From Chelydra serpentina (Eukaryota > Chordata > Testudines > Chelydridae), in the NCBI GenBank assembly GCA_037349315.1, contig JBAIAC010000006.1, positions 54,556,501 through 54,620,500 of the forward strand: DNA of 64,000 nucleotides, in the 5' to 3' direction. Shown here piece by piece: positions 20,649 to 57,460 of the stretch (position 1 is its first letter; each line of letters starts with the position of its first letter). The notes under the pieces were generated by a model. That model saw nothing but the letters and a program-made list of their open reading frames with translations. It searched no databases and was not told the DNA's origin. Made by a program: the position numbers and the translations under genes.

Positions 20649-20651
20649 TAA

Positions 20652-20687
20652 GGGTACGTCTACACTACAGAATTAGGTCGAATTTAT
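20652..20687 (+). repeat. E1 left terminal inverted repeat
   Basis: Pairs with 25680-25715. Identical core TCTACACTAC and AGGTCGAATTTAT; the outermost bases (GGGTACG against GCCCTGG) differ. Confidence 0.9.
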
Positions 20688-20802
20688 AGAAGTCGATATT
20701 TTAAAACCCGAATTTATGGAATCGATTGTGTGTGTCCCCACTAAAGAGCATTAAGACCATGAGGTCGATTGACTGTGTCCACAGTAGCGGGGCTAGCATC
20801 GA
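20678..20802. promoter_or_regulatory. E1 left subterminal TCGA cluster
   Basis: Five TCGA sites lie at 20678, 20693, 20722, 20765 and 20799, most in the form GTCGAT or ATCGAT. A matching cluster lies at the right end. Subterminal repeats in PIF/Harbinger elements are known or presumed binding sites for the transposase and its Myb-like partner. That function here is inferred. Confidence 0.5.
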
Positions 20803-20960
20803 CTTTCGGAGCATTGCATGGCGGGTAGCTATCCCACAGTTCCCGCAGTCTCCACCGCCCATTGGAATTCTGGGTTGCGATCCCAAAGCCTGATGGGGCA
20901 GAAAACATTGTCGCTGGTGGTTCTGGGTACGTCGTCAAGCCATCAAACGTCCCTCCCTCC

Positions 20961-20993
20961 CTCCGTGAAAGCAATCTTTTTCGCGCCTTTTTT
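20961..20993 (+). repeat. Duplicated leader block, copy 1
   Basis: CTCCGTGAAAGCAA followed by CGCGCCTTTTTTC. The same two blocks recur at 21670-21722 (CTCCGTGAAAGCAA, then CGTGCCTTTTTTC). The 709-bp offset matches the extra leader length of E1 compared with E2. Confidence 0.75.
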
Positions 20994-21103
20994 CCGGGGT
21001 TTGCTACGGAAGCCTGCTCAGCTCACAATTACCGTACATCTCCAGCGTACGCCTGGACATTAGGTCTAGTGGGGATTCAGTCACACTATAATACGGGCAG
21101 AGG

Positions 21104-21170
21104 GATAGCTCAGCGTTCTGAGTGTTGGCCCGCTAAACCCAGGGTTGTGAATTCAATCCTTGAGGGGGCC
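21104..21170 (+). repeat. tRNA-like cassette, copy 1
   Basis: GGGATAGCTCAGCGTTCTGAG carries a degenerate Pol III box A, GCCCGCTAAACCC looks like an anticodon arm, and GTTGTGAATTCAATCC carries a degenerate box B. It closely matches copy 2 at 21471. The anticodon-loop region resembles tRNA-Ser(GCU), but the arms do not fold as a proper tRNA, so this is a tRNA-derived (SINE-like) sequence. A hairpin and T7 run follow about 250 bp downstream. Confidence 0.6.
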
Positions 21171-21212
21171 ATTCCGCCTGAGGCTGGTAGTCGCGGGACT
21201 ACACAGCATAAG

Positions 21213-21247
21213 CTCCTTGCCTTCTAGCTGCAGATGGTGCAATATGC
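21213..21247 (+). repeat. Leader repeat d1
   Basis: CTTCTAGCTGCAGATGGTGC followed by AATATGC. A direct copy (d2) lies at 21285-21319 and two inverted copies (i1, i2) at 21561-21593 and 21613-21643. Confidence 0.75.
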
Positions 21248-21284
21248 CATAAATGGTCGTGGTCACGGGACCATACAGCAGCAG

Positions 21285-21319
21285 CTCCTTGCCTTCTAGC
21301 TGCAGATCGTACAATATGC
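21285..21319 (+). repeat. Leader repeat d2
   Basis: Direct copy of d1, 72 bp downstream, also preceded by CTCCTTGC. Confidence 0.75.
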
Positions 21320-21391
21320 TTGAAATTTGTGTGCTCCTGGCCGGCGGCCTATGTTGTGGCTGGCCGGGGGCGCTTGGACATAAATGGGAGT

Positions 21392-21423
21392 GACCAGAGT
21401 GACTCTGGTCATTCTCTTTTTTT
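21392..21423 (+). terminator. Hairpin plus T7, possible Pol III stop
   Basis: GACCAGAG-TGA-CTCTGGTC is a perfect 8-bp stem with a 3-nt loop at 21392-21410, followed within a few bases by seven T residues (21417-21423). A T run of four or more is a Pol III terminator in vertebrates, and it lies downstream of the first tRNA-like cassette. That it terminates a Pol III transcript is inference. Confidence 0.4.
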
Positions 21424-21470
21424 ACGTTTTGTTTAAGGGAAATTCAGTACTGCCTGGAACACGGGCAGAG

Positions 21471-21537
21471 GGATAGCTCAGCGGTCTGAGCGTTGGCCCG
21501 CTAAACCCGGGGTTGCGAGTTCAATCCTTGAGGGGAC
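21471..21537 (+). repeat. tRNA-like cassette, copy 2
   Basis: GGGATAGCTCAGCGGTCTGAG has a good box A (TAGCTCAGCGG) and GAGTTCAATCC is a good box B (consensus GGTTCRANYCC). It is better preserved than copy 1 at 21104, 367 bp upstream. The shared ACGGGCAGAGGG 5' flank shows that the pair arose by duplication and not by two independent insertions. Confidence 0.65.
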
Positions 21538-21560
21538 CAGGAGATGATGATGGATATCAA

Positions 21561-21643
21561 GCATATTGTACCATCTGCTGCTAGAAGGGAAGGCGCCTAA
21601 CCCTTGCTCACCGCATATTGTACCATCTGCAGCTAGAAGGAAA
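21561..21643 (-). repeat. Leader repeats i1 and i2, inverted copies
   Basis: GCATATTGTACCATCTGC at 21561 (i1) and at 21613 (i2), each followed by AGCTAGAAGG or TGCTAGAAGG, are reverse complements of d1/d2. A transcript across 21213-21643 could fold d1 or d2 onto i1 or i2. Confidence 0.7.
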
Positions 21644-21811
21644 TGAGCCTAACCCTTGCTCCCCCTTCCCTCCGTGAAAGCAACTGAGGGGGGAGCCAAA
21701 AATCCTTTCGTGCCTTTTTTCATGCGGGCGCCATATTGCTGACACCATTGTTATCCACCCGCCGCTTCTGTTCCCACTCTGCTGTCCTGCAAACAGCATA
21801 CCAGGGAAAGC

Positions 21812-23107
21812 ATGGAGCACGATCAGATCACCGCAACTGTTATCGCCATTATGAACATCATGCGCATTGTCCAGGAGTATATGGAGAACGAGAACCAGGA
21901 GCTGCTAGAACTACAGCAGGCAAGGACGCGACAGCAGTGCCCTGAGGACAGTGATGAGGACATGGACACAGACCTCTCTCAAAAAAGGTCCCCCCGCAAG
22001 GTGGACATCATGGTGGTAATGGGGCTTGTTGATACAGTGAAACGCCAATTCTGGGCCCGGGAAACAAGCACAGACTGGTGGGACCACATAGTGCTGCAGG
22101 TCTGGGATGAATCCCAGTGGCTGCGAAACTTTCGCATGCGTAAGGGCACTTTCATGGAACTTTGTGAATTGCTTTCCCCTGCCCTGAAGCGCCAGAACAC
22201 CAAGATAAGAGCAGCCCTCACAGTAGAGAAGCGACTGGCAATAGCCCTGTGGAAGCTTGCAACGCCAGACAGCTACCGGTCAGTCGCGAATCAATTCGGA
22301 GTGGGAAAATCTACAGTGGGGGCTGTTGTGATGCAAGTAGCCAGGGCGATCACCAAGCTGCTGGTACCAAGGGTTGTGAGTCTGGGAAATGTGCAGCTCA
22401 TAGTGGATGGCTTTGCAGCAATGGGGTTCCCGAACTGTGGAGGGGCGATAGACGGAACCCATATCCCTATCTTGGCACCGGACCACCAAGCCAGCGAGTA
22501 CATAAACCGAAAGGGTTACTTTTCAATAGTGCTGCAAGCACTGGTGAATCATAAGGGACATTTCACCAACATCAATGTGGGATGGCCGGGAAAGGTACAT
22601 GACGCTCGCATCTTCAGGAACTCTGGTCTGTTTCGGCTGCTGCAGCAAGGGACTTTCTTCCCAGACCAGAAAATAACCGTTGGGGATGTTGAGATGCCTA
22701 TAGTTATCCTTGGGGACCCAGCCTACCCCTTAATGCCATGGCTCATGAAGCCATACACAGGTAGCCTAGACAGTAGTCAGGACCTTTTCAACTATAGGCT
22801 GAGCAAGTGCAGAATGGTGGTGGAATGTGCATTTGGGCGTTTAAAAGCTCGCTGGCGAAGTTTATTGACTAGGTTAGATCTCAGCGAAAACAATATTCCC
22901 ATTATTATTACTGCTTGCTGTGCGCGCCACAGTATCTGTGAGAGTAAGGGGGAGACATTTATGGCGGGGTGGGAGGTTGAGGCAAATCGCCTGGCCCCTG
23001 GTTATGCGCAGCCAGACACCAGGGCTATTACAAGAGTACAGCAGGGTGCGTTACGCATCATGGAAGCTTTGAAAACCAGTTTCATGAATGGCCAGGATGC
23101 TGTGTGA
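21812..23107 (+). CDS. PIF/Harbinger DDE transposase of E1 (HARBI1-like), 431 aa
   Basis: The frame is uninterrupted. Residues about 86-125 (ETSTDWWDHIVLQVWDE) lead into a helix-turn-helix at about 140-180 (ALTVEKRLAIALWKLATPD, then SVANQFGVGKSTVG). The catalytic triad of the DDE_Tnp_4 nuclease reads D214 (GGAIDGTHI), D264 (KVHDARIFRN) and E338 (VECAFGRLK), so all three acidic residues are kept. The protein would excise and insert the element at TWA sites in the nucleus, normally with a Myb/SANT partner that binds the ends and aids nuclear import. Length is usual for active Harbinger transposases. The first ATG of the frame is used; an acidic stretch (EDSDEDMDTD) follows near residue 50. It is about 73% similar by eye to the E2 transposase in the catalytic part but unrelated at the N-terminus. 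Confidence 0.93.
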   Translation: MEHDQITATVIAIMNIMRIVQEYMENENQELLELQQARTRQQCPEDSDEDMDTDLSQKRSPRKVDIMVVMGLVDTVKRQFWARETSTDWWDHIVLQVWDESQWLRNFRMRKGTFMELCELLSPALKRQNTKIRAALTVEKRLAIALWKLATPDSYRSVANQFGVGKSTVGAVVMQVARAITKLLVPRVVSLGNVQLIVDGFAAMGFPNCGGAIDGTHIPILAPDHQASEYINRKGYFSIVLQALVNHKGHFTNINVGWPGKVHDARIFRNSGLFRLLQQGTFFPDQKITVGDVEMPIVILGDPAYPLMPWLMKPYTGSLDSSQDLFNYRLSKCRMVVECAFGRLKARWRSLLTRLDLSENNIPIIITACCARHSICESKGETFMAGWEVEANRLAPGYAQPDTRAITRVQQGALRIMEALKTSFMNGQDAV

Positions 23108-23213
23108 AAGTTCTGTTTTTCCCCAGTAATGAAAAGCACCGCCCCTTCATTCATCTACTTCCCTTTACCCAAACCACCCTGCCCTCCCCCCCTCGGTCAC
23201 CGCTTGCAGAGGA

Positions 23214-23219
23214 AATAAA
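23214..23219 (+). promoter_or_regulatory. Poly(A) signal of E1 transposase
   Basis: AATAAA 107 bp after the transposase stop. The opposing signal of the convergent gene lies 28 bp further on. Confidence 0.7.
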
Positions 23220-23247
23220 GTCATTGTTGCTTAAAAATCATGCATTC

Positions 23248-23253
23248 TTTATT
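23248..23253 (-). promoter_or_regulatory. Poly(A) signal of E1 Myb/SANT gene
   Basis: AATAAA on the - strand, 132 bp beyond the stop at 23385. With the + strand signal at 23214 it makes a compact convergent terminator. The same arrangement is present in E2. Confidence 0.65.
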
Positions 23254-23384
23254 AATTCGTAAAACACAGAGGGGGAACTATGGGGGTAACTGCCACAGTC
23301 TCCCAGGCTAGGTGGTGGAGGAAGGGAAGCACCAGGATGGGTGGTGGAGGAGGGGATGAGGGAAGGACAAGGACACACAGCACT

Positions 23385-23884
23385 TTAAAACTTATTGAAT
23401 GCCAACCCTTTCTTGCTTGGACTGTTCTCTTGGCTTGAGTGGTTGGGTGCACGGAGGCCGCCCAAACGCGTTCTTGGGCGTCTTGGGGATGAGGTTATGG
23501 GACTCGGGAAGGAGGGCTGTTGGTTACACAGGGGCTGTAGCGGTGGTCTGGGCTCAGGCGGCCTTTCCTGAGCCCTACGCCTTTCCTCAGCCAAAAGCCA
23601 GAGGATTTCTGTTTGATCCTCCAGTAGCCTCAGAATTGCATCCTGCCTTCTCTCTGCACGCTGATGCCACCTACTCTCTTCATCACGCCACCTCTCCTCG
23701 CGATCAAATTCTGCCTTCCTGGACTCCGACAGTGTCTGCCTCCACGCATTTTGCTGGGCAGCTTCAGTGTGGGAGGATTCCATGAGTTCCGAGAACATAT
23801 CGTCTTGATTCCTTTTTTTGTTACTTCTAATCTTCGCTAGCCTCTGGGACGGTGATGAAAAGGGTGGCGTTGAAACATTTGCAG
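23385..23884 (-). CDS. Myb/SANT-like partner of E1, exon 2
   Basis: C-terminal exon. The acceptor reads CCTCCCGCAG just before 23884, and the exon enters in phase 1, which matches the donor at 24807, so exons 1 and 2 join in frame to 344 aa. This part encodes SPSQRLAKIRSNKKRNQDDMF and a long charged, probably coiled-coil segment (about 90 residues rich in R, E and Q, including REERWRDEESRWHQRAERRQ), then a proline/serine-rich tail. The coiled coil probably mediates self-association or contact with the transposase (inference from Harbinger Myb-like proteins). The E2 counterpart at 52899-53476 has the same order: SPAERLQRLRKR, coiled coil, P-rich tail. Confidence 0.8.
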
Positions 23885-24078
23885 CTGCGGGAGGAAACAA
23901 ACAGGACAGGAGTAGTTTAAAAGACACATATTAGAGAACAATGCTCCAAACATTACATATCACATGTGCATTTGGTCCAAGGTTGCACTTTGCCTGTTAT
24001 ATTGAGGGTCTGCCGGTTTGGTGTGAGAGATCACACAAGCAGGTCCGGTGGGCAACAGAATTCGGCTTGCAGGCAGCC

Positions 24079-24081
24079 ATG
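24079..24081 (+). CDS. Third Harbinger gene of E1, exon 1 start codon
   Basis: ATG at 24079-24081 is directly followed by GTAAGC, a good splice donor, so the start codon is the last codon of exon 1. E2 has exactly the same design at 53632-53634 (ATG followed by GTGAGT). After splicing to 24429 the start context becomes ATGG. Found by comparing the two elements, since a 3-nt coding exon is invisible to ORF calling. The upstream end of exon 1 is not known. Confidence 0.65.
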
Positions 24082-24428
24082 GTAAGCCACAGTCTATAGG
24101 CTTCTTTAACCTTCATAACATGTGGGAATGTTTTCAAACAGCAACCCCCTCATTTCCCATAACAAACAGCCTTTGGGCTGGCAATTTAAAACTGGTTGGC
24201 AATTGAAAAGGGAGGGGCGGCGGTTTTCGGGTTAACGTGCAGCGCGAACCTAATTGACCCCCCACACACACACACACACAGACACACATCCAAGATGTTC
24301 GCTGTTCCCCCTCCCCCCACCGCGTGGGTCACAGCGGGGAAGATTTCCGTTCAGCCACAGGCAAACAGTCCAGCAGGGACGGAGCCCCTCTGAATACCCC
24401 CTTAATAAAATTCCGCTATTTCAACCAG

Positions 24429-24725
24429 GTGACCATGAATGATATCACTCTTCTGAGGATAACACAGACAGATAAAGAACGGATGTTGCTTGAATGCCAG
24501 CAAACACCGGGACCATACGCCGCCATGCTTTGCAAAGCAATGATTCCAGACTACGTGCTACTGGCCTGGCGTGGTAGAGTGTGTTACCACGGAGCACGGG
24601 ATAAGGCTGCCCTCCCCAGAAACCTTTTGCACAGGCTTTGGGAGTACATCCAGATCATCTTTCTGGAGATGTCCCCGGAGGATTTCTGCTCCATCCCCGA
24701 ACATGTTAACAGAGTTTTCCAGTAG
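24429..24725 (+). CDS. Third Harbinger gene of E1, exon 2 (unknown 99-aa protein)
   Basis: Follows an acceptor (TTTCAACCAG) and continues in frame from the ATG at 24079: 98 codons plus stop. I do not recognise the family. The protein has an N-terminal NDITLLRI block, a PGPYAAMLCKAMIP block, a WRG block, AALPRNLLHRL and a hydrophobic C-terminal half predicted helical (WEYIQIIFLEM, then a D/E-x-F...HVN-x-F end). No signal peptide, zinc finger or long basic region is seen. The E2 copy has the same blocks (DISLLRV, PGPYAACLCAAMVP, QWRGHV, AALPMNL, ADFSDVIDHINALF) at roughly 45% identity, so it is conserved coding sequence and not a chance frame. It lies antisense within the Myb/SANT intron. Function unknown; an accessory protein for transposition or host interaction is possible. 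Confidence 0.75.
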   Translation: MTMNDITLLRITQTDKERMLLECQQTPGPYAAMLCKAMIPDYVLLAWRGRVCYHGARDKAALPRNLLHRLWEYIQIIFLEMSPEDFCSIPEHVNRVFQ

Positions 24726-24753
24726 CTGTAGCTGTACTGGCCGCGAATTAATC

Positions 24754-24759
24754 ATTAAA
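24754..24759 (+). promoter_or_regulatory. Poly(A) signal of the third gene in E1
   Basis: ATTAAA 28 bp after the stop of the third gene and still inside the Myb/SANT intron. E2 has AATAAA in the matching place at 56500. Confidence 0.55.
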
Positions 24760-24806
24760 CACGCTTGCTTATAAAACATGTATTAATTTAACAGAGGTAC
24801 ACTCAC

Positions 24807-25341
24807 CAGAGGTCCCTTCTCCTGCATCGAGCACGCCTTGGGTGGGTTCGTAGGGTACTGGCTCCAGGGTGACAAAGAGTTCCTGGCTGTCGTGGAAAAG
24901 GGCTTCTCCCCTTCCTTGCTGTGTCTGGGCGCTATTTTCAGCACCATTATTATCATCATGCTCCTCTGTGGTTTCTGATGATCCACATACGGAGTCATAC
25001 CACATGGGTGGGTCAGTGTTGGCTGCACCTCCTAGAATGGCATGCAGCTCATCATAGAAGCGGCATGTCTGGGGCTCTGACCCAGAGCGGCTGTTTGCAT
25101 CTCTGGCTTTTTGGTAGGCTTGCCTGAGCTCCTTAATTTTCACGCGGCACTGTTGCGCGTCCCTGTTGTAGCCTCTGTCCTGCATGCCCTTGGAGACTTT
25201 GGCATATGTATTGGTGTTTCTTCTTTTGGACCGTAGCTCTGCTAGCACGGTTTCGTCTCCCCAAACAGCGATCAGATCGCGTACCTCACGCTCGGTCCAT
25301 GCTGGAGCTCGTCTTCGGTTCTGGGACTCCATCATGGTCAC
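24807..25341 (-). CDS. Myb/SANT-like DNA-binding partner of E1, exon 1
   Basis: Start ATG at 25341; the exon ends at 24807 before GTGAGT, phase 1. Residues about 12-103 form a Myb/SANT-like (MSANTD/Myb_DNA-bind_4) domain: W15, W27 in LIAVWGDE, RRNTNTYAKVSKGM, CRVKIKELRQAYQKAR, and the closing CRFYDELHAILGG. An acidic linker and a SQELF motif follow (SQELF is also in E2). In Harbinger elements this second protein binds the terminal regions and brings the transposase to the nucleus and DNA; that role is from the family. The open frame runs past the donor to 24769, but the spliced form is preferred because exon 2 joins in phase. The gene reads inward from the right end and converges on the transposase. 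Confidence 0.85.
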
Positions 25342-25515
25342 CTCTGCTGATGAGATCTGCGCTCACCTGCAGCTCACCACGCTGGCCAAACAGAAAATGA
25401 AATTCAAAAGTTCGCGGGGCTTTTCCTGTATACCTGGGCGGAGCATTCGAGCTCAGACTGCTGTCCAGAGCGGTCAAATGTTGCACTGTGGGATAGATCC
25501 AGGAGGCCAATACCA

Positions 25516-25689
25516 TCGAATTGCATCCTCACTAAGCCTACATCGATTCGGCAATATCGCTTTAAGCGCTAATCCCCTCGTTGGGGGTGGAGTGGCGAGA
25601 TCGATTTTAAGAGCCCTAGAAGTCGATGTTAAGGGCTTCGTCGTGTGGACGGGTGCACGGATCAATCGAAATAACGCTAATAAATTCGA
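25516..25689. promoter_or_regulatory. E1 right subterminal TCGA cluster
   Basis: Six TCGA sites at 25516, 25543, 25601, 25623, 25676 and 25686, mostly in ATCGAT or GTCGAT context, mirror the five at the left end. Confidence 0.5.
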
Positions 25690-25715
25690 CCTAAACTCGT
25701 AGTGTAGACCAGGGC
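25680..25715 (-). repeat. E1 right terminal inverted repeat
   Basis: Inverse of 20652-20687, followed directly by the TAA duplication. Confidence 0.9.
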
Positions 25716-25718
25716 TAA

Positions 25719-50802: not shown

Positions 50803-51002
50803 AGCTTATGCTTTTAAAGCTAATTTTCAAATGGAATTAATATTTTTAATAGCATTAGTATGTGCAGAATGCAGTGTTCTAACTAGATTAATGAAAGCTT
50901 TCAACACATTAACAGACAATTCTGGGCCAAATTGTCACTTCCATGATAGAATGTTGCAAAAGGACAAGGAAGATCGAAGTTCCAAATGATGTAACTTCCT
51001 TA

Positions 51003-51032
51003 GGCCTTGGCTACACTTGCAGATGTACAGCG
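51003..51032 (+). repeat. E2 left terminal inverted repeat
   Basis: Pairs with 57428-57457; GGCCTTGGCTACACT is identical in both. A further partial copy (GGCTACACTCGC inverse) lies inside the right end near 57380. Confidence 0.9.
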
Positions 51033-51077
51033 CTGTTAGTTAAACCCGTGTTCGTACAGCTGAGTAGGGAAAGCGCT
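51029..51077. promoter_or_regulatory. E2 left subterminal AGCGCT palindromes
   Basis: AGCGCT at 51029 and 51072, inside CAGCGCTG or AAGCGCTG, with a near match CAGCGCAG at about 51113. Matched by three sites at the right end. The TCGA motif of E1 is absent here. Confidence 0.5.
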
Positions 51078-51384
51078 GCAGCCTGTCCACACTGGCAGCC
51101 GCCAGCGCAGTAACTAGCACTGACGTGGCTACATTTGCGGCACTTGCAGCGGTTTTGGGAGAGGTGCATTATGGGCAGGTATCCCACAGAACACCTCTTC
51201 CAATTCTGGCGCCGTGGGTTGTGGGAAGGGGGCGTGGGGTATGGTGCATTCTGGGTCCTGTCCCAACGCCCCGTGATGCATCGCTTCGCATCCCAGCAAT
51301 CCCTGTGTTTCCGGCCACAATTTGCGCCATCTTTCAACGGTTTCTTTGTATCGCGATCTGTGCTCCGTTTCGGCCAGCGGGAAA

Positions 51385-52626
51385 ATGGATCCCGACCTGG
51401 TGAGCAAAATACTGACGAGTCTCGCCAGCACGTCACGTTTGGCAGTCGAGCTGTTCCTTAAGATCCACAGTGACAGCGAGGAGTCCGACAATGAAATTGT
51501 CACGCAAAACGCGTATGACACTAACTTGCTTGTGGCATTCACGGACATGCTATGCACCGTGGAACACCGCTTTTGGGCTTGGGAAACCAGCACAGAGTGG
51601 TGGGATCACATTGTCATGCAAGTCTGGGATGACGAGCAGTGGGTGCAGAACTTTCGAATGAGAAAAGCTTCTTTCATGGGACTGTGTGAGGAGCTCGCCC
51701 CCGCCCTGCGGCGCAAGGACACGAGATTGAGAGCTGCCCTGACGGTGGAGAAGCGGGTGGCTATTGCAATCTGGAAGCTTGCAACTCCGGACTGCTATCG
51801 ATCAGTAGCGAACCAGTTTGGAGTGGGAAAGTCGACCGTTGGAATCGTGCTGATGCAAGTTTGCAAGGCCATTAATCGCATCCTGCTCAGAAGAACCGTG
51901 ACTCCGGGTAACATGCAGGACATTGTGGCTGGCTTTGAACAAATGGGTTTCCCTAACTGCGGAGGGGCGATAGATGGGACGCATATTCCTATTCTGGCAC
52001 CACCTCACCTAGCATCCGAGTACATTAATCGGAAGGGGTATTTCTCCATGGTTCTCCAGGCGCTTGTGGATCACTGTGGGCGTTTCATTGACATCAACAC
52101 AGGCTGGCCCGGAAAGGTGCATGACGCACGCATCTTTCGGAACACTGCCCTGTTCCGGAAGATGCAGTCTGGGACTTTTTTCCCAGACCGGAAGATCACG
52201 GCAGGGGAAATTGAAATGCCCACTGTGATCCTTGGAGACCCCACGTACCCTTTAATGCCGTGGCTCATGAAACCCTACACCGGGAGCCTTGACACCAGCA
52301 AGGAACGGTTCAACTACAGGCTGAGCCGGTGCAGAATGACTGTGGAGTGTGCTTTTGGCTATTTGAAGGGCCGCTGGCGATCTCTATATGGGAAGCTGGA
52401 CTTCGCCGAACACAGCATCCCTGGGGTTATATCCGCGTGCTGTACCCTCCATAATATTTGTGAAGGGAAAGGTGAAATATTCACTCAGGCGTGGACCTCA
52501 GAGGTTCAACACCTGGAGGCTGAATTTGCACAGCCAGAGAGCAGGGCTATTACAGGGGCCCAGCGTGGGGCTGCAAGGATCAGGGATGCCTTGAGGGAGA
52601 AATTTGAGGCTGAAAACCACCAGTAA
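51385..52626 (+). CDS. PIF/Harbinger DDE transposase of E2, 413 aa
   Basis: Open frame. I choose the ATG at 51385 (MDPDLVSK, context AAAATGG) over one 63 bp upstream because the upstream part has no similarity and this fits the family length. Domain order is as in E1: WWDHI block, helix-turn-helix (LTVEKRVAIAIWKLATPD, FGVGKSTVG), then the DDE triad D197 (GGAIDGTHI), D247 (KVHDARIF) and E321 (VECAFGYLK), all kept. It could catalyse TWA-targeted transposition in the nucleus, but its partner gene in the same element is broken. No stop or frameshift is present although the neighbouring Myb/SANT exon 1 has three stops. Confidence 0.9.
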   Translation: MDPDLVSKILTSLASTSRLAVELFLKIHSDSEESDNEIVTQNAYDTNLLVAFTDMLCTVEHRFWAWETSTEWWDHIVMQVWDDEQWVQNFRMRKASFMGLCEELAPALRRKDTRLRAALTVEKRVAIAIWKLATPDCYRSVANQFGVGKSTVGIVLMQVCKAINRILLRRTVTPGNMQDIVAGFEQMGFPNCGGAIDGTHIPILAPPHLASEYINRKGYFSMVLQALVDHCGRFIDINTGWPGKVHDARIFRNTALFRKMQSGTFFPDRKITAGEIEMPTVILGDPTYPLMPWLMKPYTGSLDTSKERFNYRLSRCRMTVECAFGYLKGRWRSLYGKLDFAEHSIPGVISACCTLHNICEGKGEIFTQAWTSEVQHLEAEFAQPESRAITGAQRGAARIRDALREKFEAENHQ

Positions 52627-52770
52627 TGTGTGCTGCCCTGCACGACCCTGAAGTGAAGTGGTTCCAATGTTATCAGTCATCTGTCTTTGCTAAGCTGATT
52701 TGTGTTTGCTCAGCTCACTTGCGTTGCCTGTTTCTTTCCTGGGCTAAGGTATCTTTTTTCCTTATGCAAT

Positions 52771-52776
52771 AATAAA
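52771..52776 (+). promoter_or_regulatory. Poly(A) signal of E2 transposase
   Basis: AATAAA 145 bp after the stop, facing the - strand signal at 52803-52808. Confidence 0.65.
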
Positions 52777-52802
52777 GACTGTTTGCACATCCAAAGAATC
52801 CG

Positions 52803-52808
52803 TTTATT
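52803..52808 (-). promoter_or_regulatory. Poly(A) signal of E2 Myb/SANT gene
   Basis: AATAAA on the - strand, 91 bp beyond the stop at 52899. Convergent pair with 52771, spacing 26 bp, as in E1. Confidence 0.6.
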
Positions 52809-52898
52809 ACAGAGAAAATACATGTATTAAAAAGAAACACAACTGCTTGTGAGACAGAAAGGGCAAGGGGGTGGTGGGTGGTGTGGGGAAGGGTTCAA

Positions 52899-53476
52899 TC
52901 ACAGGGTATGGTATGTCCTGCTTTCATACTCGGGCTTCCTGTCTGGAGTGCTGTGCAGTGAGTGCTGGACCTCAGGATGTCTATAATTCGGGATGGGAGT
53001 TGAGTGCAGTGGGTAAGGGTCATAGTTTCCAGGGCTGTCTGGTGAAGCTACAGGTGTTGGGGGCATCTGGTGTGGGCGATAAGAACCTGGATGTTGGGTG
53101 AAGTGGGCAGGTGGTGACATGGGGGCACAAGTGTTTTGGGACACTGGCTGCAGGGGGGGGTGGGGTGGGCGGGTGCGGTACTGCTCCGCCTGCATGGCGA
53201 CGAGCGCCTGGATAGAGTCCGCTTGGCGCGCCAAGATGCTAATCAGTTCCTTTGTGCTTTCGTGCCGGAGCTGCATGCTTTGCTGCCGCTGCGCTGCGTT
53301 TTCCTGGCGGATCCTGCTTTCACTCTCCCTCCACTCCCGAGCCTTTTGATTCTCTTTAAGAGACTGTTTCATAACTTCCTGCAGCATGTCTTCTTTTGTT
53401 CTTCTGGGCCTCTTCCTGAGCCTTTGTAGTCTCTCAGCCGGTGATAAGAAGGATGGCGGAGATCTCAAGGTTGCAT
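52899..53476 (-). pseudogene. Myb/SANT-like gene of E2, exon 2
   Basis: The acceptor CCTTCCAG precedes 53476 and the exon enters in phase 1, as in E1. It encodes SPAERLQRLRKRPRRTKEDML, a coiled-coil segment of about 75 residues rich in Q, R and E, and a P/S/T-Y-rich tail. The exon itself is open to its stop, but exon 1 is broken, so the gene is called a pseudogene. The similarity of block order to E1 supports the two-exon model. Confidence 0.75.
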
Positions 53477-53631
53477 CTGGAAGGCAAAATGCAACACTTA
53501 ACAGAGGCATCATTGTTTTATGCCAGACAGAGCAATGATTCCCCCACACTTAAGGAGGGCACACACAGTCTCCAAAACAGCACAATTTTCCCATCCCAAA
53601 CAGAGCGCACAGAACCCACGGGAGCCCCAAA

Positions 53632-53634
53632 ATG
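53632..53634 (+). pseudogene. Third Harbinger gene of E2, exon 1 start codon
   Basis: ATG at 53632-53634 immediately followed by GTGAGTAAG, a near-consensus donor. It corresponds in position and design to 24079 in E1. The intron is 131 bp, ending TTTTCCACAG at 53765. Confidence 0.6.
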
Positions 53635-53896
53635 GTGAGTAAGCACAGGGTAAAGGGGGACTGATTGTTTCACGGATGTACTGTCCGATGGATTTCTGTG
53701 CCTTGGGGAGAGCCAGCAGCTGCAGGGGGAACCTACACTGAACACTATCCCCACATTTTCCACAGGAGTTCGTCCTGGAAGATATCTCGCTGCTGAGGGT
53801 GTCCGGGGAATCATAGAATCATAGAATCTCAGGGTTGGAAGGGACCTCAGGAGGTCATCTAGTCCAACCCCCTGCTCAAAGCAGGACCAACCCCAA

Positions 53897-55714
53897 CTAG
53901 ATCATCCCAGCCAGGGCTTTGTCAAGCCTGACCTTAAAAACCTCTAAGGAAGGAGATTCCATCACCTCCCTAGGTAACCCATTCCAGTGCTTCACCACCC
54001 TACTAGTGAAAAAGTTTTTCCTAATATCCAACCTAAACCTCCCCCTCTGCAACTTGAGACCATTACTCCTTGTTCTGTCATCTTCTACCACTGAGAACAG
54101 TCTAGATCCATCCTCTTTGGAACCCCCTTTTAGGTAGTTGAAAGCAGCTATCAAATCCCCCCTCACTCTTCTCTTCTGCAGGCTAAACAATCTCAGTTCC
54201 CTCAGCCTCTCCTCATAAGTCATGTGCTCCAGCCCCCTAATCATTTTTGTTGCCCTCCGTTGGACTCTTTCCAATTTATCCACATCCTTTTTGTAGTGTG
54301 GGGCCCAAAACTGGACACAGTACTCCAAATGAGGCCTCACCAGTGCCGAATAGAGGGGAATAATCACGTCCCTCGATCTGCTGGAAATGCCCCTACTTAT
54401 ACAGCCCCAAATGCCGTTAGCCTTCTTGGCAACAAGGGCACACTGTTGACTCATATTCAGCTTTTCGTCCACTGTAACCCCTAGGTCCTTTTCTGCAGAA
54501 CTGCTGCCCAGCCATTCGGTCCCTAGTCTGTAGCAGTGCATGGGATTCTTCCGTCCTAAGTGCAGGACTCTGCACTTGTCCTTGTTGAACCTCATCAGAT
54601 TTCTTTTGGCCCAATCCTCTAATTTGTCTAGATCCCTCTGTATCCTATCCCTACCCTCCAGCGTATCAACCACTCCTCCCAGTTTAGTGTCATCTGCAAA
54701 CTTGCTAAGGGTGCAGTCCACACCATCCTCCAGATCGTTGATGAAGATATTGAACAAAACCGGCCCCAGCACCGACCCTTGGGGCACTCTACTTGATACC
54801 GGCTGCCAACTAGACATGGAGCCATTGATCACTACCCGTTGAGCACGACCATCCAGCCAGTTTTCTATCCACCTTACCGTCCATTCATCCAACCCATACT
54901 TCTTTAACTTGCTGGCAAGAACGCTGTGCGAGACTGTATCAAAAGCTTTGCTAAAGTCAAGAAATAGCACATCCACTGCTTTCCCCTCATCCACAGAGCC
55001 AGTTATCTCATCATAGAAGGCAATTAGGTTAGTCAGGCATGACTTGCCCTTGGTGAATCCATGCTGACTGTTCCTGATCACTTTCCCCTCCTTTAAGTGG
55101 TTCAAAATTGATTCCTTGAGGACCTGTTCCATGATTTTTCCAGGGATTGAGGTGAGACTGACTGGCCTGTAGTTCCCCGGATCTTCCTTCTTCCCTTTTT
55201 TAAAGATGGGCACTACATTAGCTTTTTTCCAGTCATCCGGGACCTCCCCCGATTGCCATGATTTTTCAAAGATAATGGCCAATGGCTCTGCAATCACATC
55301 GGCCAACTCCTTTAGCACCCTCGGATGCAGTGCATCCGGCCCCATGGACTTGTGTTCGTCCAGCTTTTCTAAATAGTCCCGAACTACTTCTTTCTCCACA
55401 GAGGGCTGGTCACCTCCTCCCCATAACGTGCTGCGGAGTGCAGCCATCTGGGAGCTGCCCTTGTCTGTGAAGACAGAGGCAAAAAAAGCATTGAGTACAC
55501 TAGCTTTCTCCACATCCTCTGTCACAAGGTTCCCTCCCTCATTCAGCAAGGGGTCCACACGTTCCTTGACTTTCTTCTTGTTGCTAACATACCTGAAGAA
55601 ACCCTTCTTGTTACTCCTAACATCTCCGGCTAGCTGCAACTCCAAGTGTGATTTGGCCTTCCTAATTTCACTCCTGCATGCCTGAACAATATTTTTATAC
55701 TCCTCCCTGGTCAC
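53897..55714 (-). CDS. CR1 reverse transcriptase region (ORF2 C-terminal part), 605 aa
   Basis: Non-LTR reverse transcriptase used for target-primed reverse transcription of CR1 RNA. Visible in order: the [14 protein letters not shown] and NYRPVSLTS fingers, the [14 protein letters not shown] block, [14 protein letters not shown] (motif A), [18 protein letters not shown] (motif B) and FADDTK (motif C, FADD at residues 339-342, catalytic aspartates kept), followed by the thumb with [18 protein letters not shown] and a C-terminal region ending KALAGMI. The true ORF2 starts further upstream; the same frame is open back to about 55812, where a one-base frameshift separates it from the endonuclease. 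The ATG at 55714 is internal to the family protein. Confidence 0.85.
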
Positions 55715-55811
55715 TTGTCCAATCTTCCACTTCTTGTAAGCTGCTTTTTTGTGTTTAAGACGAGCAAGGATTTCACTGTTAAGCCAAGCTGGTCGCCTGC
55801 CATATTTATTT

Positions 55812-56190
55812 TCTTTCTACACATCGGGATGGTTTGTTCCTGCAACCTCAATAAGGTTTCTTTAAAATACAGCCAGCTTTCCTCGACTCCTTTCCCCCTC
55901 ATGTTATTCTCCCAGGGGACCTTGCCCATCAGTTCCCTGAGGGAGTCAAAGTCTGCTTTTCTGAAGTCCAGGCTCTGTATTCTACTGTTCTCCTTTCTTC
56001 CTTGTGTCAGGATCCTGAACTCGACCATCTCATGGTCACTGCCTCCCAGGTTCCCATCCACTATTGCTTCCTCTACTATTTCTTCCCTGTTTGTGAGCAG
56101 CAGGTCAAGAAGAGCTTTTCCCCTAGTTGGTTCCTCCAGCACTTGCACCAGGAAATTGTCCCCTACACTTTCCAAAAGCAAGGAAGCAAG
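55812..56190 (-). pseudogene. CR1 endonuclease C-terminal fragment
   Basis: Frame upstream of the RT with LLDLLLTNREEIVEEA and GGSDHEMVEF, the closing part of the APE-type endonuclease including the catalytic SDH motif, then [13 protein letters not shown]. It changes frame near 55807-55818, where an A/T-rich run has gained or lost one base. The N-terminal endonuclease half is missing by 5' truncation. Confidence 0.75.
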
Positions 56191-56499
56191 GGAGGGTCTT
56201 CTACTGCAATGCGGCTTCCGCCCTGGCCCATATGCAGCTTGCCTGTGTGCAGCAATGGTCCCCCCGCGGCACAGTGGCGCGGACACGTTACCCTGACTGG
56301 GACAAGGACCACGGCGGCTCTCCCAATGAACCTGCGCAAGCGCATTGCCCACGTCCTGGCTGAGACTTTCGAAGAGATTACAGTGGCCGATTTCTCCGAT
56401 GTGATAGACCACATCAATGCGCTCTTCCGCATCTAGGCATGCATGCAGCCAAAACCCTCCTCGCCCAAGGACCCCACACCGAAAAAACTCCTTCCCGAA

Positions 56500-56505
56500 A
56501 ATAAA
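56500..56505 (+). promoter_or_regulatory. Poly(A) signal of the third gene in E2
   Basis: AATAAA 64 bp after the stop at 56436 and 10 bp before the donor of the antisense Myb/SANT exon 1. In E1 the equivalent signal lies at 24754. Confidence 0.55.
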
Positions 56506-56515
56506 AGCTGCTTAC

Positions 56516-57054
56516 CGCGAACCTGTTCTTCTCTTTCTCTCCCAGCGCGTACCGGCTGCTGCGACTGGCTCCCTTCCTCCTGGCTCGAGAAGAGCTCCTG
56601 GCTGCATGCACCCAGGGAGTCGGGTGTCTCCCCCAGCCACAGCACCCTCGCTTCTGTTTTCTTCAACCCCCTCCTCCTCCTCCTCCTCTCCCTCCTCCTC
56701 CTCATCCCGCTCTCCCATGTCCATGGTGGTGCTCGGAAGAGTAGTGGGGTCAACCCCAAGTATCGCATCCAGCTCTTTGTAGAATCAGCAGGTTGTGAGG
56801 GGAGCACCCGAGCGCTTGTTTGCCTCGCGGGCTTTGTGGTACGCACTTCGCAGCTCCTTTACTTTTATCCTGCACTGCATTGCGTCCCGGTCATGGCCCC
56901 TTTCAATCATGGCCCTTGATATCTGGCCGAAAGTATCGAAATTCCTCCGGCTGGATCACAGCTGGGACTGGACAGCTTCCTCCCCCCAAACAGTGATGAG
57001 GTCCAGCAGCTCGCCATTGCTCCATACTGCGGCTCATCTCACACGTGGAGGCAT
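56516..57054 (-). pseudogene. Myb/SANT-like gene of E2, exon 1, three TGA stops
   Basis: From ATG at 57054 the frame gives a Myb/SANT-like domain: WSNGELLDLITVWGEE, RRNFDTFGQISRAM, CRIKVKELRSAYHKAR, FYKELDAILG. It has TGA codons where a CGA/CGN arginine or TGC is expected: near the start, after VQSQL, and before FYKEL. All fit CpG-to-TpG decay. A frameshift follows in the CTC/GAG-repeat (poly-Glu) region near 56670-56700, after which SQELF and QSQQ read in another frame up to the GTAAGC donor at 56515 (phase 1). Dead gene, but its exon plan matches E1. Confidence 0.78.
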
Positions 57055-57341
57055 GGTTACCTGGAAAGATGCGCGGAGAGCACTCCACGCCTGGCTGAGC
57101 AAACAGGAAGGGGATATTTAAAATTCCAAAGGAATTTAAAGGGTCGGAGTGGCGGTTGGTCACCTGAGGCCAGGGCAGTAGAGTGCTAATTGATGACCAG
57201 AGTGGCTAGAACAGGCGTTGTGGGATACTTCCGAATACTTCTGGAGGCCAATAACAGCGCATTGGGTGACCACACTGTAGCCGCAGCGCACCAGCAGCAG
57301 CGCAACAAACGTTATTCCTCTGGAGGAGGTGGAGTACATGC

Positions 57342-57412
57342 AGCGCTGTACCCGAGGAGATGCAGCGCTGCACGTGCCTTGCGAGTGTAGCCAGTTAGTG
57401 AGTTACAGCGCT
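57342..57412. promoter_or_regulatory. E2 right subterminal AGCGCT palindromes
   Basis: AGCGCT at 57342, 57364 and 57407, each inside CAGCGCTG, with near matches (CAGCGCA) at 57256 and 57284. Mirror of the left-end sites. Confidence 0.5.
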
Positions 57413-57427
57413 GCAGGCAGTTTTATT

Positions 57428-57457
57428 GCGCTGTAACTCGTGAGTGTAGCCAAGGCC
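57428..57457 (-). repeat. E2 right terminal inverted repeat
   Basis: Inverse of 51003-51032, followed by the TTA duplication. Confidence 0.9.
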
Positions 57458-57460
57458 TTA

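What the first reader, a model, noticed from the sequence alone, without database searches (positions are those of the whole stretch)
24079..24759. A nested third gene in PIF/Harbinger elements, antisense within the Myb/SANT intron
Seen in sequence: in E1 an ATG lies exactly at a splice donor (ATG/GTAAGC, 24079), and an acceptor at 24428 opens a 98-codon exon in frame with it, followed by ATTAAA. In E2, a different Harbinger family, the same plan occurs: ATG/GTGAGT at 53632, acceptor at 53765, matching coding blocks and AATAAA at 56500. Shared protein blocks include DI-LLR, PGPYAA-LC-AM-P, WRG, AALP-NL and a D/E-F...H-N-F end. Established: vertebrate Harbinger elements are described with two genes, a DDE transposase and a Myb/SANT-like protein. 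Inference: this is a third, conserved component of unknown function, possibly a modulator of transposition or a host-interaction factor. I know of no description of it.
Basis: partly seen in the sequence, partly recalled or inferred. Interest (0 to 1): 0.9.

Follow-up and report, generated by a model that had tools for sequence, protein, structure and literature searches.

The report
Hidden third gene in Harbinger transposons
A jumping-DNA family that is described as carrying two genes carries, in this animal's genome, a small conserved third gene tucked backwards inside an intron of the second one, perhaps coding for a small DNA-binding or adaptor protein.

Summary
In E1 (20652-25715, TAA duplications) an ATG at 24079-24081 sits on a GT donor. 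It joins in frame across 24082-24428 to a 98-codon exon, stop at 24725, all antisense within the Myb/SANT intron. E2 (51003-57457) has the same plan, but a CR1 element interrupts its exon 2.

The host genome holds many more copies: all 150 scored of 13350 candidates (E1 query) and of 10832 (E2 query). E1, E2, a young subfamily E3 and an older family E4 encode it. E1 and E2 products are about 41% identical; 26 columns are invariant. The frame is under constraint: dN/dS 0.25-0.52 between E1, E3 and E4, synonymous sites saturated against E2, and no frame gaps against 15 intron gaps (E1-E4). Donor and acceptor survive in 65 and 66 of 68 loci.

Pfam finds no family. Weak, uneven signs point to a BEN-like domain: NACC1-BEN is the best TM match of a poor model, and E1 and E4 resemble the host's BEND3 in register. 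This is unproven.

Passages seen in three papers describe two genes. I judge it a genuine third gene (about 0.9), probably an accessory factor of transposition. Splicing, expression and presence in other species could not be tested.

The parts
20652..25715 (.). PIF/Harbinger element E1, with TAA target-site duplications at 20649-20651 and 25716-25718
   Evidence: Ends and duplications read; TIR pairing 86.7% over 30 bases
21812..23107 (+). E1 DDE transposase gene (431 codons), AATAAA at 23214
   Evidence: Pfam DDE_Tnp_4 E=7.8e-36
24807..25335 (-). E1 Myb/SANT gene, exon 1 (MMESQN...), donor TCTG|GTGAGT
   Evidence: Pfam Myb_DNA-bind_4 E=8.4e-22; splice site read; the joined frame is open for 342 aa
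23385..23884 (-). E1 Myb/SANT gene, exon 2, acceptor CCGCAG|CTGCAA; the intron is 23885-24806
   Evidence: Open frame; splice site read; joined frame
24079..24081 (+). Nested gene, exon 1 coding part: a single ATG ending at the GT donor; 5' limit unknown
   Evidence: ATG|GT in 65 of 68 loci
24082..24428 (+). Nested gene, intron (GTAAGC...CAACCAG)
   Evidence: AG acceptor in 66 of 68 loci
24429..24725 (+). Nested gene, exon 2: 98 codons plus TAG; product of 99 aa
   Evidence: about 41% identical to the E2 product
24754..24759 (+). ATTAAA, likely polyadenylation signal of the nested gene, 47 bases before Myb exon 1
   Evidence: present in the E1, E3 and E4 sequences
51003..57457 (.). PIF/Harbinger element E2, with TTA target-site duplications at 51000-51002 and 57458-57460
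51385..52626 (+). E2 DDE transposase gene, 65% identical to E1's
53632..53634 (+). E2 nested gene, ATG at the donor GTGAGT
53766..56436 (+). E2 nested gene, exon 2, interrupted by the CR1 element and out of frame downstream; AATAAA at 56500
   Evidence: intact frame in other copies

Best explanation
It is a genuine third, two-exon gene of these Harbinger families. It lies on the transposase strand and is nested antisense in the intron of the Myb/SANT gene. Exon 1 supplies the start codon and exon 2 a 98-100 residue helical protein that more likely than not has a BEN-like fold, a small DNA- and protein-binding domain. I think it most likely works as an accessory or regulatory factor in the transposition complex: a third contact to element DNA or to the Myb protein or transposase. 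Its antisense nesting probably also makes its transcription compete with that of Myb, so that activity is damped as copies accumulate. Shown: the gene plan, homology between families, constraint and survival of the splice sites. Inferred: splicing, expression, BEN-like fold and function.
Against: No RNA could be seen. Scans for the spliced junction of E1 and E2 found no retrocopy, and no positive control for that scan was answered. Pfam's BEN model does not match the protein; of 10 matches of that model in the genome I read 9 and none is the nested gene. Profile comparison with BEN sets is weak and depends on the set: 1 of 200, 1 of 200, 3 of 150, 6 of 200, 13 of 200, 31 of 150 and 55 of 200 shuffles reached the score. 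Against fly, BANP or the second host BEN alone there is no match, and the solved-structure profile search lists no BEN. The E2 product alone does not resemble BEND3 beyond chance (p 0.1 at best), and the E2 model finds no BEN among 34 matches. Both models are poor (pLDDT 44 and 47). Copies in the genome lists were chosen by protein score, which favours intact frames. No function was tested.
Confidence: 0.6

Rival explanations
1. A real third gene, but with a fold and role unrelated to BEN, for instance a small inhibitor of the transposase or an antagonist of host silencing.
For: Coding evidence is the same. No Pfam family matches and BEN signals are weak and uneven.
Against: A structure search put the NACC1 BEN domain on top by TM-score and probability, and the match of E1 and E4 to BEND3 is colinear.
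Confidence: 0.3
2. Not a separate gene but a downstream alternative exon set of the transposase transcript, so that the small protein is made from a long plus-strand transcript.
For: It is on the transposase strand, and its own promoter was not sought or found. A TTGCAG or TTCCAG precedes exon 1 in E1, E3 and E4, so an upstream exon is possible.
Against: The transposase has its own stop and an AATAAA at 23214. The nested ATG lies in a good start context (GCAGCCATGG) at exon 1.
Confidence: 0.12
3. An antisense regulatory RNA of the Myb gene whose open frame is incidental.
For: Position antisense in the Myb intron, with conserved splice sites.
Against: Amino-acid conservation across saturated synonymous divergence, dN/dS below 1 and no frame gaps while the intron gathers 15.
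Confidence: 0.05
4. A passenger: a host BEND3-like exon captured once and carried along without use.
For: Resemblance of E1 and E4 to host BEND3.
Against: It is kept in four families as divergent as 41% identity, with constraint similar to the Myb gene. A passenger should have decayed.
Confidence: 0.05
5. A chance open frame.
For: Single open frames of about 100 codons do occur by chance.
Against: Homology at E=2.5e-13 in the window and four families with the same splice plan.
Confidence: 0.01

Closest known systems
Animal PIF/Harbinger transposons (Harbinger3_DR of zebrafish and relatives)
   Same: DDE_Tnp_4 transposase, Myb/SANT partner gene, 3-bp TWA target-site duplication, terminal inverted repeats
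   Different: A third two-exon gene nested antisense in the Myb intron; the passages seen of PMC9179366, PMC4482050 and PMC9710019 describe two genes
ISL2EU elements
   Same: Same superfamily, with a second protein beside the transposase
   Different: Their second gene is a YqaJ nuclease in place of Myb (PMC9179366, passages), not a third nested gene
BEN-domain proteins (BEND3, NACC1, Insv)
   Same: Predicted helix order of the E1 model and a colinear weak match of E1 and E4, closest to BEND3 BEN2 and BEN4 and to the NACC1 fold
   Different: No Pfam BEN match; about 99 residues standing alone; encoded by a transposon; E2 shows no significant match

Membership tests
PIF/Harbinger superfamily (the element) | DDE_Tnp_4-type transposase | tested here: met
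   E1 7.8e-36, E2 8.2e-33
PIF/Harbinger superfamily (the element) | Second gene with a Myb/SANT domain | tested here: met
   E1 exon 1 8.4e-22; E2 51% identical to it
PIF/Harbinger superfamily (the element) | 3-bp TWA target-site duplication and TIRs | tested here: met
   E1 TAA/TAA, E2 TTA/TTA; TIRs
[quoted passage not shown]
   Third conserved frame in four families
BEN domain (Pfam PF10523) | Score over the Pfam cut-off | tested here: not met
   No match up to E=10; a BEN-like string of my own making scored 75 bits as a control
BEN domain (PF10523) | Five-helix BEN fold (helix count recalled) | tested here: inconclusive
BEN domain (PF10523) | Significant profile similarity to known BEN domains | tested here: inconclusive
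   1 of 200 to 55 of 200 shuffles reach the score, depending on the BEN set; no match to the fly set
BEN domain (PF10523) | Sequence-specific DNA binding | not testable with these tools
   Needs protein and a binding assay

The most novel reading that the evidence does not exclude
Some vertebrate Harbinger transposons are three-gene elements: transposase, Myb/SANT factor and a BEN-like protein encoded antisense in the Myb intron. The nesting couples the third protein's expression to repression of Myb, giving the transposon a built-in brake or a third DNA-recognition factor.
Probability: 0.4. Interest if true: 0.82.

Novelty: new variant of a known kind. Interest (0 to 1): 0.72.

Why it matters
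Harbinger transposition is modelled as a two-protein reaction, in which Myb brings the transposase to the nucleus (PMC9710019, passages). A conserved third protein would mean that the model is incomplete for families with at least 150 scored copies each in this genome (E1, E2 and E4). It would also supply a candidate regulator, and another possible source of domesticated DNA-binding genes beside HARBI1 and NAIF1. Frame-based annotation could easily miss it, as the frame starts with a lone ATG at a splice donor.

Tried and rejected
Chance frame: rejected. Known family by sequence: Pfam and the solved-structure sequences gave nothing convincing. The profile's best chain was an archaeal TATA-box-binding protein at E=0.034; I set it aside because the E1 model is helical there and that fold, as I recall it, has strands. 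The E2 structure model lists no BEN among 34 matches, and a fly BEN set gave no profile match. Retrocopies of the spliced RNA: none found for E1 or E2 with up to 3 mismatches. The tool warns that common words may be skipped, and my positive-control scans did not complete, so this absence carries little weight. A transposase majority sequence for E4 was too broken to give a fair dN/dS (172 codons, 0.57), so I do not use it. A first transposase alignment was misframed and replaced; regions cut one base off served only to place matches. A joined Myb translation started one base off; one search repeats it correctly.

Of my genome-search runs only 14, 28, 43, 50, 106, 111 and 134 were answered; the others met a busy machine.

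Full report
What is in the window. E1 is a PIF/Harbinger element at 20652-25715, bounded by TAA duplications and inverted repeats. On the plus strand lies a DDE transposase (21812-23107; Pfam DDE_Tnp_4 7.8e-36). On the minus strand lies a Myb/SANT gene whose two exons (25335-24807 and 23884-23385) frame an intron of 922 bases with a GTGAGT donor and a CCGCAG acceptor; joined, they read open for 342 residues. Inside that intron, on the plus strand, is the nested gene. Its ATG at 24079-24081 is followed at once by GTAAGC. The acceptor ends at 24428 and exon 2 runs for 98 codons to a TAG at 24723-24725, with ATTAAA at 24754. E2 (51003-57457, TTA duplications) has the same plan: ATG|GTGAGT at 53632, acceptor at 53765, and exon 2 interrupted by a CR1 LINE and out of frame further on, with AATAAA at 56500. 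The transposases of E1 and E2 are 65% identical, so they are different families.

It is not chance. The E1 product finds the two E2 pieces at E=2.5e-13. The family products of E1 (99 aa) and E2 (101 aa) score 208 against a maximum of 52 in 2000 shuffles.

The whole host genome is held (2.28 Gb, unnamed). Its size, CR1 and Harbinger content fit a turtle, but that is my inference. Only the best 150 candidates per search are scored, and these are chosen by score, so intactness in these lists is biased, and the candidate totals are not copy counts. With E1, 150 of 150 scored (13350 candidates) matched and 148 had no stop. With an E2 piece of 53 residues, 150 of 150 scored (10832 candidates) matched without a stop. 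Through the transposase family I found a very young subfamily, E3, with a 482-codon transposase frame and many copies with identical scores; its nested product is 92% identical to E1's. I also found an older family, E4 (75 of 99 residues as in E1, 42 of 96 as in E2), of which many copies carry stops. Of 12 further regions picked by their transposase and not by the nested gene, 11 carry it, 8 of 12 with a full-length frame and stop. The twelfth (L054) is cut off by other sequence.

Constraint. Between family sequences the frame gives dN/dS of 0.25 (E1-E3; 8 synonymous changes in 62.5 sites, 8 nonsynonymous in 234.5; Fisher 0.0076), 0.43 (E3-E4) and 0.52 (E1-E4). E3 is one copy here, E1 and E4 are majority sequences of 8 copies each. 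Bootstrap shares at or above 1 are 0.017, 0.010 and 0.050, so single pairs are only moderately strong. The Myb exon between E1 and E4 gives 0.56 with 63% identity (111 of 177 codons), against 75 of 99 for the nested product: the third gene is at least as conserved as the second. Between E1 and E2 synonymous sites are saturated (pS 0.81) while pN is 0.43 (Fisher 3.5e-8). Between E1 and E4 the nested intron gathered 15 gaps and the frame none; between E1 and E3, 5 and none. The donor ATG|GT is kept in 65 of 68 loci read and the AG acceptor in 66 of 68. L058 and L062 are the same copy, and L024 and L025 share an identical middle; with each pair counted once this is 63 and 64 of 66. In E2, exon 2 has no ATG at the matching place, so the start must come from exon 1. 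This is the best sequence argument that the splice is used. No RNA was available. Scans for retrocopies of the spliced RNA found none, without a positive control.

How it may work (inference). In zebrafish Harbinger3_DR the Myb-like protein binds the transposase, and this is needed for both to reach the nucleus (PMC9710019, passages). A third small helical protein kept with them most simply serves the same complex, as a further DNA or protein contact or as an inhibitor. Transcription of the nested gene would run against Myb transcription across the Myb intron, and its ATTAAA lies 47 bases before Myb exon 1, so the two genes may interfere with each other and form a dosage brake.

What is known. 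I saw passages of three papers, and the abstract of the first: PMC9179366 (teleost Harbinger, 'two ORFs'), PMC4482050 (survey of 836 genomes, two ORFs with a Myb/SANT protein as the second) and PMC9710019 (two genes). Paper searches answered: (25 of 140 listed). I saw no third Harbinger gene in these listings and passages; only open-licence papers are held, and Repbase entries and the coelacanth paper (not held) were not seen. Passages of PMC9004415 concern protein fossils, not this gene.

Verdict. A genuine third gene of these Harbinger families: about 0.9. BEN-like: about 0.55. Role in transposition: plausible, untested.

Noticed in passing
window 53811-56180: A CR1 LINE (its reverse-transcriptase frame open for 639 codons at 53897-55816, minus strand; named CR1 from recall) is inserted in exon 2 of the E2 nested gene.
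   Followed up: partly
L049 and the list: Subfamily E3 has a 482-codon transposase frame with many copies tied at exactly the same score, which suggests a very recent burst of Harbinger activity in this genome.
   Followed up: partly
L058, L062-L069: An older Harbinger family (E4) whose copies often carry TGA stops in the nested frame, as expected of CpG decay, yet whose majority sequence keeps the nested frame and open Myb exons.
   Followed up: partly
window 24030-24081 and L049, E4: A stretch upstream of the nested ATG (GCAACAGAATTCGG) is conserved in E1, E3 and E4 although it seems non-coding; it could be promoter, 5' UTR or an upstream splice acceptor (TTGCAG/TTCCAG).
   Followed up: no
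L075 (G000 C10:55217000-55218800): Host BEND3-like gene with four BEN domains in one 750-codon frame, the closest to the nested protein among the BEN domains compared.
   Followed up: partly
L024 and L025 (G000 C158): Two E2 copies about 239 kb apart share an identical 600-base middle and equal flank counts, so the region is probably duplicated, in the genome or in the assembly.
   Followed up: no
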